Origin: Rhodococcus sp. OK519
GTDB taxonomy: Bacteria > Actinomycetota > Actinomycetes > Mycobacteriales > Mycobacteriaceae
Direction of reading: 5' to 3'
Assembly (NCBI RefSeq): GCF_003051005.1
Contig: NZ_QAOW01000009.1
Coordinates: 1 to 64,000 of the forward strand
DNA: 64,000 nt
Shown here: positions 51,401 to 63,489 of the stretch, in pieces
How positions within the stretch are numbered: position 1 is the first letter of the stretch
Layout: the number at the start of each line of letters is the position of its first letter
The notes under the pieces: model-generated
The model's input: the letters and a program-made list of their open reading frames with translations, nothing else
What the model was told of the DNA's origin: nothing
The model's database searches: none
Made by a program: the position numbers and the translations under genes

Positions 51401-54400
51401 CGGCCGAGCACCGAGGAGAACACATCCGCGACGAGTTGTTCGGTGGCGGTGGCGGGTTCGGCACCCACACCGGAATCCGGTGCAGGCAGGGCGTGGGTGT
51501 CGATCTTGCCGTTCGCGGTGAGAGGGAGGGCTGTCATCGGAACGATCGCCGACGGCACCATGTACGACGGAACACTGTTCGCGAGCGAGCGTCGCAACTC
51601 TGCGATGTCGACCGTCACGGGCACCACGTACGACACGAGTGTCGTCGTACCGTTGGCGTTCTCGCGGATGATGGTCATCGACTGGGTCACGTCGGCGCGG
51701 CGGACGAGGACGGCGTCGATCTCGGCGAGTTCGATACGGATACCGCGGACTTTGACCTGGGCGTCGTTGCGCCCGCGGAAGTCGAGAACACGGCCGTCGG
51801 GACGGTCGAGCCAAAGCACCAAGTCCCCGGTGCGGTACCAGCGCCGCCCGTCCGGTCCGGCGACGAACCGTTCCGCGGTGCGGGCAGGGCTACCCGCGTA
51901 TCCGACGGACATCCGGTCGCCGGCCAGGTACAGCTCGCCCGTCACGCCGGTGGGCACCGGCTGCATTCGCGCGTCCAGCACCAGCGTCTCGATGCCGCGG
52001 GCGGGTGTTCCGATCGTCGCGGGCAGTTCCGGTCGCAGAGGCTGTGAGTAGGTCGCGAACACGGTCGACTCGGCCGGCCCGTAGCCGTTGTACAGCCGGC
52101 GGCCGGGCGACCAGCGCGCAACCAGTTCGGGCGGCACTCGCTCGCCTCCGAGCATGATCGTCTCGAGCGCCGGTAGCGCACGGGGCGGGACCGTCGCCAG
52201 TGCCGACGGCGTCATGCACGCATGGGTAACGTGCTCGCGCTCGAGGAGCCGCGCCAATTCTTCTCCGCCATAAGCGTTCTCCGGGGCAATGATCAGGCAG
52301 GCACCGGATCCCGCAGCCACCAGCAGCTCCAGGAGAGCTGCATCGAATCCGGGTGAGGCGAGGGCGAGCATCCGCGAATTCGGTCCGGCGGCGAACACGT
52401 CGCGCAGATCCTGGGCGAGCGCGCCGAGGCCACGTGCGGTGAGGACGATGCCCTTCGGGGCGCCGGTCGTACCGGATGTGAAGACGATGTAGGCCGGATG
52501 GTCATCCTGCACGCCGAGGTCGGCGTGATCCGGGAGACCGGGGAGGTCGTCGATCGCCGCGTCCACCGTGACGTCGATCCACTGCGTATGTGTCGGCAGA
52601 CCACCGATTCGGTCGACGCTGCTCACCCCGATCACGGCGCCCGATGCCGCGAGCATCGCGGCGAGACGCGACGGCGGGTGCGACGGGTCGAGCATGACCG
52701 GTGCCGCACCCGTTCGAGCGATGGCCCACACCGCGATCACCGCGTCGAGCGAGCGCGGGAGGGCGCATGCCACCGCGGCGCCCGGTACGGCGCCGTGAGC
52801 GCGGAGGGTGGTGGCGAGCGTCTCGGCCCGCGTCACGAGTTCGGTGTAGCCGAGTTCGTTCTCCCCGGAGCGCGCGGCGACCCCAGATCTGCCGGTCCCG
52901 GCGCCGTCGGCCAGCAGCGACCACAGCGAACTCGGGGTGCCGATTTTCCCGCGCGCCGGTACCAGTTCCCTGCGCTCGGCGTCGGTGAGCAGGTCGATCC
53001 GGCCCACCTCGACATCCGGATCGCGCAAGGATTGGTCGAGGAACCTCGAGAACCGCGACGCGAACGCGGCGACCGTGGCTGCGTCGTACAGGTCCCGCTG
53101 GTAGGTGAACTCCAGATCGATCGAGTCGGCGGTTTCGGTGACCGTCAACTGCAGGTCGAACGGCACCGAATCGAGCGGGGCGGCCGCCGCGGACACCACG
53201 AGACCGGGTAGGTCGAGGGTGGGCAGCGCGGGCCGGCGCATCGACAATGCAACCTGGAACAGCGGATGGTGGGACGAATCACGCACCGGGGCAAGGTGTT
53301 CGACGATGGTTTCGAACGGAGTCCGGGCGTGTGTGTAGGCGGCCAGATCCCGGTCACGGACGTGGGCGAGAAGATCCGCGAACGACGCATCGCCCGCGAC
53401 CCGTGTGCGTAGGACCAGGGTGGCGGCGAACATTCCGACCACGTCGTCGAGCCGGGGGTCACCGCGGCCCGCGACCACCGTGCCGACCGGGATGTCCTCG
53501 GACCCCGCGTGTCTGGAGAGCACCGCCGCCAGCGCCGCGTGCAGGACCATGAACGTGGTGGCGCGGCCACGCCGAGCGGTCTCACGCACAGCATGGATCT
53601 GCTTGCCGCTCAGAGCGATGCGGATGCTGTCGGCGTGGGACGTGCCTCCGGCCGGACGCGGGTGATCGTGTGGGAGCGTCGACTGCTCGGGCAGGCCGCC
53701 GAGCACGTCGAGCCATGTCTGCAGGTCGTCCTCCGCGCTGTCCGCCTGCCATGCCGCGTAGTCGACATACTGCACGGGCAGGGCGTCCCACTGAGGCTGC
53801 CGACCCGCGAGCCGGGCACGGTACGCGTCCGCGGTGTCGCGCAGCATCGGCGTGAGCGACCATTCGTCCGCGGCGATGTGGTGCACCACGAGCACGAGCG
53901 CATAGCGTCGGGTACCGGTCCGGTACAGGCGCAGCCGGACCGGAGGCTCACTTTCGAGCACGAAGGGGGTCGCCGCGAAGGACGTCACATAGTCGTCCAG
54001 TGCTGATGCGGGCACCGAAATCGGCGTCAGGTCGACCTCCGGGACATCGATCACCACCTGCACCGGGCCTGACTCGTCCGACGGGTACACCGTCCGCAGC
54101 GTCCGGTGCCGCTCGAGGACGTCGCGGAGCGCGGCACCGAGCGCATCGACGTTCACGTCGCCGCGCAGGCCCACCACGAACGGCAGGTTGTGCGCGGCTG
54201 TCTCGGGGGTGAAGCGGTACAGGAACCACAGGCGGCGCTGCGCGGGCGACAGCGGCCCGCGCATGCGGGCTCCGTCGGACACCGGCAGCCGACGGCCGTG
54301 GCGTGGCCCGCCCACTCGGTCCTCGACCACCCGCGCGAGATCCGCCACGACGGCCGACTCGAACACGTCCCGGACACTGACGTCCGTACCGGTGAGTGCA

Positions 54401-63400: not shown

Positions 63401-63489
63401 TTGAGCGCCACGACCAGAGGCACATCTGGGGTGAGCTGTTGCGCCAGAAGGAGCGCCCGTTGGGCGGACGACAGCGAGAAGGGGTGCAC
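44731..63489 (-). CDS. Six-module non-ribosomal peptide synthetase with terminal thioesterase
   Basis: 6252 aa from the GTG read at 63489, which has GGGGGAGGG just upstream; the in-frame ATG 24 bases earlier (63513) has no ribosome-binding site. Domain order (residues approximate): C1-A1-T1 (1-1010), C2-A2-T2 (to 2020), C3-A3-T3 (to 3070), C4-A4-T4 (to 4100), C5-A5-T5 (to 5020), C6-A6-T6 (to 6010), TE (6030-6252). All A domains keep TSG(S/T)TGxPK and the catalytic Lys (..GK(V/I/L)..); all six carriers have GGxS. No epimerase, methyltransferase or cyclisation domain is seen. Starting with a C domain suggests an acylated first residue. No MbtH, phosphopantetheinyl transferase or acyl-ligase gene is in the window. 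Confidence 0.95.
45401..48420 (-). other. NRPS module 6: C6 - A6 - T6
   Basis: C6 motif HHIAVDG. A6 is also shortened between A2 and A3 but keeps APVDP. Pocket D-A-F-N-V-A-G-V-G, not assignable. Carrier FFELGGTSM near 45568. Confidence 0.8.
48421..51190 (-). other. NRPS module 5: C5 (DHLVADG) - shortened A5 - T5
   Basis: C5 has DHLVADG with the first His replaced. A5 lacks the VPxDP (A2) motif and about 40 residues between A2 and A3. Its A3 motif ends PKTV rather than PKGV. Pocket D-A-L-L-A-G-A-V-V. Carrier FFAAGGHSL near 48575. Confidence 0.78.
51191..54262 (-). other. NRPS module 4: C4 (altered motif) - A4 - T4
   Basis: C4 reads HHIAADE instead of HHxxxDG; the catalytic second His and the Asp remain. 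A4 pocket D-A-L-C-M-G-G-V-F, not assignable. Carrier FFVAGGDSL near 51358. The GGDS form often precedes epimerases, but none is present. Confidence 0.8.
54263..57420 (-). other. NRPS module 3: C3 - A3 (threonine) - T3
   Basis: C3 motif HHIAVDG. A3 pocket read as D-F-W-N-I-G-M-V-H, the established threonine code. Just before its A3 motif lies an Ala/His/Gly insert with a tandem DNA repeat (55641-55688). Carrier FFELGGNSL near 54435. Confidence 0.88.
55641..55688 (-). repeat. 24-bp tandem repeat in A3 of the NRPS
   Basis: Two 24-bp units starting CGCCTGCGGCGTGGGCGGCG, identical at 21 of 24 positions, code an Ala/His/Gly-rich insert between the A2 and A3 motifs of the threonine-activating domain. 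The reading frame is kept. Confidence 0.8.
57421..60449 (-). other. NRPS module 2: C2 - A2 - T2
   Basis: C2 motif HHIAMDG. A2 pocket read as D-G-L-F-G-G-L-V-V, not assignable. Carrier FFTFGGNSL near 57575. Boundaries approximate. Confidence 0.8.
60450..63489 (-). other. NRPS module 1: starter C - A1 - T1
   Basis: C1 has HHLVLDG; being first, it probably acylates the first residue. My manual A-domain alignment to GrsA gives positions 235-331 as D-A-Q-V-D-G-A-I-L; I do not recognise this code. Carrier Ser lies in FFALGGNSL near 60596. Boundaries approximate. Confidence 0.8.

What the first reader, a model, noticed from the sequence alone, without database searches (positions are those of the whole stretch)
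54263..63489. NRPS product: acylated hexapeptide with Thr at position 3
The first domain is a condensation domain, there are six A domains, and A3 gives the exact threonine code by manual alignment. The other five codes (listed under the modules) match nothing I recognise, so the product may be new.
Basis: partly seen in the sequence, partly recalled or inferred. Interest (0 to 1): 0.6.

Follow-up and report, generated by a model that had tools for sequence, protein, structure and literature searches.

The report
Lipopeptide synthetase inside a capsule locus
One giant gene encodes an enzyme predicted to build a fat-tipped six-amino-acid peptide, and it sits at a fixed place inside the bacterium's surface-polysaccharide gene cluster, as do relatives of three to eight modules, which suggests that this peptide and the slime or capsule belong together.

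Summary
The six-module NRPS is real: one gene, 44731-63513 (-), 6260 aa. It has six C, six A and six T domains, one TE, and no E domain. C1 types as a starter C domain and A3 has the exact Thr code, so "acylated hexapeptide with Thr at 3" is well supported as a prediction. The other codes are not wholly opaque: A4 resembles a Val code, A5 and A6 resemble Tyr and Phe codes (recalled comparisons).

The gene ends 18 nt before a capsule-type tyrosine kinase gene (Wzz/CapB) and is divergent from a DUF4012 gene, beside a Wzx/Wzy-like polysaccharide cluster. Ten of ten intact six-module orthologs share this arrangement. Relatives with 3, 4, 5 and 8 modules occupy the same kind of site, also on three named Rhodococcus plasmids. 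Starter C domains of DUF4012-linked NRPSs form one clade (24 rows, support 94/97). The last modules are largely homologous by position; the N-terminal end varies.

Best reading: an acyl-peptide made as part of a surface-polysaccharide system. Whether it is attached to the polymer or only co-produced is unknown. Known kind of enzyme; I found no description of the partnership.

The parts
44731..63513 (-). six-module NRPS, one ORF of 6260 aa: Cs-A-T, five C-A-T, TE
62236..63477 (-). C1, starter-type condensation domain, motif HHLVLDG
60742..62160 (-). A1, code DAQVDGAILK
   Evidence: span
60499..60696 (-). T1 (approximate span around FFALGGNSL)
59143..60435 (-). C2 (LCL-like by its best solved relatives)
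57715..59070 (-). A2, code DGLFGGLVVK (upper end approximate)
57478..57675 (-). T2 (approximate)
56101..57408 (-). C3
54574..56043 (-). A3, exact Thr code DFWNIGMVHK
54337..54534 (-). T3 (approximate)
52960..54255 (-). C4
51487..52920 (-). A4, code DALCMGGVFK (Val-like by a recalled code)
51259..51456 (-). T4 (approximate)
50032..51189 (-). C5, compact: the stretch before the active-site motif is shortened and the motif reads DHLVADG; the orthologs are alike
48715..49983 (-). A5, code DALLAGAVVK; a code of this type was read in every linked NRPS; compact
48475..48672 (-). T5 (approximate)
47101..48411 (-). C6
45712..47064 (-). A6, code DAFNVAGVGK
45469..45666 (-). T6 (approximate)
44767..45381 (-). 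thioesterase domain (PF00975, 1.2e-30; GWSLGG)
43216..44712 (-). Wzz plus tyrosine autokinase (CapAB/Wzc type), starts 18 nt after the NRPS stop; probably the same operon
63514..63701 (.). 188-nt gap between the divergent NRPS and DUF4012 genes, probably a shared promoter region (inferred)
63702..64000 (+). first part of the DUF4012 gene (whole gene 63702-65558, runs out of the window)

Best explanation
The gene encodes a complete single-chain NRPS that puts an acyl group on residue 1 through a starter C domain, joins six amino acids (third Thr; fourth probably Val/Ile-like; fifth and sixth hydrophobic, possibly aromatic; first two unassigned; all probably L, since there is no E domain), and releases the peptide with its own TE. 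It belongs to a family of acyl-peptide synthetases that is a standing component of a surface-polysaccharide (capsule/EPS) locus: probably cotranscribed with the chain-length/tyrosine-kinase gene and divergent from DUF4012, next to sugar-polymer genes. The most likely role is an amphiphilic envelope or matrix component made when the polysaccharide is made. Shown by sequence: architecture, starter type, Thr code, conserved codes, fixed neighbourhood, single clade, module-number variants. Inferred: acyl identity, form of release, export, cotranscription, role in the polysaccharide layer.
For: Architecture. C1 starter type. The genome's starter C beside a DHB-AMP-ligase-like gene falls outside the clade of 44 that holds C1 (99/93), which speaks against an aryl cap, though that row has a long branch and its place is unsure. 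Codes: A3 is the Thr type in 11 of 11 six-module rows (exact in 9, I to V in 2); 425 of 480 code cells unchanged. Fixed site: kinase and DUF4012 flank the NRPS in 10 of 10 orthologs. In the genus 12 of 14 genomes hold kinase and DUF4012, and the same 12 hold the NRPS between them; the other 2 lack kinase and DUF4012 at E 1e-60. The 16 best C1 rows in 151 genomes all belong to an NRPS beside DUF4012; 20 of the 73 best rows do (given 73 of the listed C1 rows and the best 40 of 74 DUF4012 rows). 24 linked C1 domains form one clade, 94/97, in 93% of bootstrap trees. Plasmids pYLL2 and pDK1 carry DUF4012, NRPS and 'polysaccharide biosynthesis tyrosine autokinase' beside sugar genes, and USK10 the same trio by tblastn. 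The kinase matches CapAB and Wzc structures. DUF4012 stands beside wzz in the Bifidobacterium longum EPS locus too (PMC5412050, one passage).
Against: Among the 20 neighbouring ORFs scanned with Pfam no acyl ligase, acyl carrier or lipopeptide exporter was seen; the genome's two MbtH genes lie on other contigs. Related loci keep kinase and DUF4012 together without an NRPS between them (G062, G063, G041), and an R. qingshengii plasmid has DUF4012 among sugar genes with no NRPS annotated. In 3 of 24 linked cases (G035 C13, G040, G038) the kinase is not next to the NRPS. Thr is absent in the three-module forms. Not every code is fixed: G039's A6 is DALDVGGVMK and A2 and A4 vary at 17 and 14 of 80 cells. 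The clade's support (94) is just under the program's mark of 95. No expression or chemical data.
Confidence: 0.65

Rival explanations
1. A free, secreted lipopeptide (surfactant or antibiotic) whose gene merely sits in the polysaccharide locus and shares its control; no functional tie to the polymer.
For: Starter-C lipopeptide NRPSs are common in this group: 69 of 79 NRPS families in the 28 strains of one study show lipopeptide hallmarks (PMC5550956, passages). The site can be without an NRPS.
Against: The starter clade and the DUF4012/kinase site go together across several genera and on plasmids; in the genus 12 of 14 genomes have all three, and 2 lack kinase and DUF4012.
Confidence: 0.3
2. 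C1 uses an aryl or hydroxy-acid donor, giving a capped siderophore and not a lipopeptide.
For: ObiF, EntF and VibH-type C domains, which I recall as aryl-using, are among the C1 matches (9.1e-39, 2.3e-31, 3.6e-17 for 1l5a); the genome has a DHB-AMP-ligase-like gene (713.8 bits, cut-off 723.55).
Against: That gene lies on contig C3 beside another NRPS whose starter C falls outside the clade of 44 with C1 (long branch). The acyl-type starters score higher. No siderophore genes were seen among the 20 neighbouring ORFs scanned.
Confidence: 0.07
3. Thr3 is the nucleophile for TE-catalysed lactone formation, giving a cyclic depsipeptide with a four-residue ring.
For: Thr stands three places before the last residue in the 8-, 6- and 5-module forms read and in one of two 4-module forms.
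Against: In G060 it stands two places before the last, and the three-module forms at such sites have no Thr, so it is not a family-wide rule.
Confidence: 0.25

Closest known systems
Rhodococcus starter-C NRPS families (Ceniceros et al. 2017, PMC5550956)
   Same: large NRPS with N-terminal starter C domain, predicted lipopeptide, unknown product
   Different: the word 'polysaccharide' does not occur in its main text; I read passages and one section, its figures are not held, and I could not match this gene to one of its numbered clusters
Mycobacterial glycopeptidolipid (GPL) loci (recalled)
   Same: an NRPS acyl-peptide made together with sugar-transfer genes for the cell surface
   Different: here the sugar genes look like a polymer system (pyruvyl transferase, Wzx/Wzy-like proteins, tyrosine kinase), and no MmpL-type gene was seen among the 20 neighbouring ORFs scanned; GPL sequences were not compared
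Capsule/EPS loci with Wzz and a bacterial tyrosine kinase (CapAB, Wzc)
   Same: kinase close to CapAB/Wzc structures, priming transferase, glycosyltransferases, DUF4012 as in B. longum
   Different: a giant NRPS lies between DUF4012 and the kinase
Humimycin-type NRPS (as described in PMC5550956)
   Same: Rhodococcus starter-C lipopeptide NRPS
   Different: not compared by sequence; I recall humimycin as a heptapeptide

Membership tests
NRPS lipopeptide synthetase with starter C | first domain is a starter C, not LCL | tested here: met
NRPS lipopeptide synthetase with starter C | complete elongation modules and a release domain | tested here: met
   six C-A-T and a TE
NRPS lipopeptide synthetase with starter C | acyl chain on residue 1 of the product | not testable with these tools
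   no chemistry; acyl donor unknown
NRPS lipopeptide synthetase with starter C | acyl ligase or acyl carrier in the cluster (often present, not required) | tested here: inconclusive
   none among the 20 neighbouring ORFs scanned; not every neighbour was scanned
Thr-activating A domain | code DFWNIGMVHK | tested here: met
   A3; code given as Thr in PMC3207962
Wzx/Wzy polysaccharide locus component | constant neighbourhood with kinase and DUF4012 | tested here: met
   10 of 10 six-module orthologs; variants and plasmids
Wzx/Wzy polysaccharide locus component | required for making or modifying the polymer | not testable with these tools
   needs a deletion mutant; loci without an NRPS at the site exist
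Catecholate siderophore NRPS | DHB-AMP ligase beside the NRPS | tested here: not met
   the ligase-like gene is on contig C3; on C9 the model rings only inside this NRPS

The most novel reading that the evidence does not exclude
The acyl-peptide is a structural part of the surface polysaccharide: the TE, or an extracytoplasmic step involving DUF4012, attaches it to the polymer or to its carrier, giving the polysaccharide a lipid-peptide anchor or hydrophobic side group. Lineages would change it by adding or losing N-terminal modules while keeping the C-terminal end that meets the common machinery.
Probability: 0.15. Interest if true: 0.8.

Novelty: new variant of a known kind. Interest (0 to 1): 0.5.

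Why it matters
Rhodococcus polysaccharides are reported to carry fatty acids and to protect cells from hydrocarbons (PMC12786566 and PMC12298843, passages), and most NRPS families of the group have no known product (PMC5550956). A giant synthetase fixed inside the polysaccharide locus, present in 12 of 14 genomes held for the genus and carried with that locus on plasmids, gives one orphan synthetase family a testable role. It also offers a natural series of 3-, 4-, 5-, 6- and 8-module assembly lines at one kind of site with a largely conserved C-terminal end, useful for studying how such assembly lines gain and lose modules.

Tried and rejected
Universal Thr-lactone rule: rejected, since Thr is at n-2 in G060 and absent in the three-module forms. 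Reading the compact module 5 as decayed: rejected; the shortening recurs in the orthologs (G039's C5 less so) with a DH-type motif, and 74 of 80 A5 code cells are unchanged. Aryl-capped siderophore: disfavoured. Looking up the unknown codes in print: no paper. The one genome-contig scan gave only two Nocardia loci, in which none of the flanking genes was found, so the window's genus has no name from a call; the closest named systems are on Rhodococcus plasmids. DUF4012 has no relative among solved structures (best E 0.63).

Rows and readings dropped: G009 (NRPS broken in pieces, genome 79% complete) is left out of the code counts. G035 C13 and G038 were read only in part and are left out of the module-number series; the USK10 and DK17 genes are near-copies. 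In one search the motif script missed several ortholog domains; the codes quoted come from the alignment. The A-domain tree used 68 domains and left out G007, G013, G003, G002, G006, G009, G012, G048, G038, USK10 and G035 C13; its groups were named partly from the codes themselves. In one search the NRPS-to-kinase gap was misread for G078 and G039 and these are not used; in the other eight the first candidate kinase start after the NRPS stop lies 5-63 nt downstream, and G002 also has candidates before it. The unlinked rows of the C-domain tree were hand-picked, and outside the window's genome I did not check that each is the first domain of its NRPS.

Full report
What is there. The window holds one ORF of 6260 aa at 44731-63513 on the minus strand. 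Six condensation domains were found by the Pfam model, AMP-binding, carrier and thioesterase domains by a Pfam scan in three pieces, six carrier motifs and one GWSLGG by motif. There is no epimerization domain and no dual C/E motif. The order is Cs-A1-T, C-A2-T, C-A3-T, C-A4-T, C-A5-T, C-A6-T-TE.

First domain. C1 against the solved structures: 7c1k 4.6e-48, CDA 1.8e-41, ObiF 9.1e-39, EntF 2.3e-31; 5u89 only 9.9e-06. The control, C2, gives the reverse: 5u89 9.5e-62, a PCP-C didomain 7.2e-61, 7c1k 1.7e-08. In a 51-row tree C2-C6 form one branch (100/100) and C1 with 45 starter-like C domains the other. That the 7c1 entries are the rhizomide starter C is recalled.

Substrates. The codes are DAQVDGAILK, DGLFGGLVVK, DFWNIGMVHK, DALCMGGVFK, DALLAGAVVK, DAFNVAGVGK. 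A3 is the Thr code; PMC3207962 (one passage seen) gives its eight-letter form for PvdD Thr. Against recalled codes, A4 is near Val, A5 near a tyrocidine Tyr code and A6 near Phe; ortholog G078 has DALIMGGTFK at A4, nearer still to Val. These are leads, not tests. Across ten orthologs (52-76% identical overall) 425 of 480 code cells are unchanged, by domain 69, 63, 78, 66, 74 and 75 of 80, against 66% of the other positions in the same stretch. Substrate choice therefore looks conserved; the clearest exception is A6 of G039.

Neighbourhood. The next gene, 43216-44712 (-), begins 18 nt after the NRPS stop and is a Wzz plus AAA protein best matched by CapAB and Wzc kinase structures, with a tyrosine-rich tail. 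Upstream and divergent, 63702-65558 (+) is DUF4012, followed by an IS481-type ORF, UDP-glucose dehydrogenase, a polysaccharide pyruvyl transferase, two proteins without a Pfam match that I take for Wzx and Wzy from their sequence and place, a nitroreductase-family protein and two glycosyltransferases, then a priming sugar transferase (named from its sequence; 61% identical to a stretch of pYLL2 annotated as sugar transferase) and dcd. In ten orthologs the kinase (67-89%) and DUF4012 (61-82%) flank the NRPS in 10 of 10. The priming transferase is found in 8 of 10 flanks and UDP-glucose dehydrogenase in 7, while of the genes between them only one glycosyltransferase (43-45%, in 3) and the Wzy-like protein (29%, in 1) match (only 3.1 kb of that flank exists for G039). 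That is the usual pattern of a polysaccharide locus with a variable middle.

Spread. 14 genomes of the genus are held. Twelve have the kinase and DUF4012 with an NRPS between: six-module in ten, one of these broken in pieces, and five-module in G001 and G012. G004 and G011 have neither kinase nor DUF4012 at E 1e-60, and their best C1 matches are only 1.1e-86 and 2.2e-82. A genus search with a 1e-95 cut-off rings in 11 of 14, missing G012 whose starter scores 4.8e-92. In other genera of the family such a site holds six modules (G078, G039), four (G035 C29, G060), three (G067, G048) or no NRPS (G062, 711 nt between the kinase and DUF4012 matches; G063 and G041, adjacent). G040 has a three-module NRPS next to DUF4012 with its kinase on another contig; G038 and G035 C13 have partly read NRPSs next to DUF4012 and no kinase beside them. 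Plasmid pYLL2 of Rhodococcus sp. YL-1 has five modules, pDK1 of DK17 and a USK10 plasmid eight, each between DUF4012 and a tyrosine kinase; on pYLL2 and pDK1 the annotation shows sugar transferase, GDP-fucose and UDP-glucose/GDP-mannose dehydrogenase genes next door. An R. qingshengii plasmid has DUF4012 among sugar genes with no NRPS annotated. Of the 73 best C1 rows taken, 20 lie within 6 kb of one of the 40 best DUF4012 rows (of 74), and these 20 include the best 16. The 24 linked C1 domains are one clade, 94/97, in 93% of bootstrap trees.

Module homology. In a 68-domain tree the Thr domains (11 of 11) and the DxLCMG-type domains (9 of 9) are each one group (SH-aLRT 100 and 99); penultimate and last domains are each nearly so, with exceptions from G001 and G060; first domains are mixed. 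A code of the A5 type (DALL, A or G, GA, V or I, V or A, K) was read in all 24 linked NRPSs. The C-terminal part of the line thus looks old and shared, and length changes mostly on the N-terminal side.

How it probably works. Shown: a complete assembly line with a starter C domain closest to acyl-using ones. Inferred: acyl transfer to residue 1 from a donor made elsewhere in the cell, chain growth to six residues, TE release, export by an unknown route, and a role in or on the polysaccharide layer. Covalent attachment to the polymer is possible and untested.

Compared with what is known. Starter-C NRPSs of unknown product are common in Rhodococcus (PMC5550956; passages and section 8 seen). [quoted passage not shown] those are other strains, and whether one of them is this locus I could not tell. 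Searches for DUF4012 with nonribosomal peptide, DUF4012 with polysaccharide, and Rhodococcus with NRPS, Wzz, capsule, exopolysaccharide, tyrosine autokinase or peptide synthetase terms listed no paper whose title or abstract start describes this partnership; most listed papers were not opened, and the library lacks most subscription journals. R. equi 103S is reported to have 11 large NRPSs and a polysaccharide island (PMC2947987, passages); whether they meet there was not tested. PMC11433410 was seen as abstract and outline only, PMC12786566 as passages, PMC5412050 as one passage.

Verdict. Known kind of enzyme, new variant by context.

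Noticed in passing
window 48475-51189: Module 5 is compact in the orthologs too: C5 is shortened before the active-site motif, whose first His is Asp (DHLVADG), and A5 lacks much of the stretch before the TSGSTG motif; yet its code type is kept in all linked NRPSs.
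   Followed up: partly
window 41556-42512 (-): A protein with weak FGGY/MreB/Hsp70 (actin-fold) matches is kept beside the kinase in most orthologs, also in G062 without the NRPS.
   Followed up: no
L009:9696-10922 (+): ORF with IS481-type helix-turn-helix matches between DUF4012 and UDP-glucose dehydrogenase.
   Followed up: no
window 16730-20139 (-): Two adjacent dynamin-family GTPase genes, placed like mycobacterial iniC/iniA (recalled).
   Followed up: no
window 13014-14261 (-): Protein of the beta-lactamase family PF13354 (7.9e-53).
   Followed up: no
G000 contig C3, about 224570-246216: A DHB-AMP-ligase-like gene beside NRPS genes, a probable catecholate siderophore cluster of the same genome.
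   Followed up: partly
G062:C1:456058-457305: In G062, whose kinase-DUF4012 site has no NRPS, another NRPS with a starter-like C domain begins about 7 kb from the kinase, beyond YibE; its C domain is not in the linked clade.
   Followed up: no
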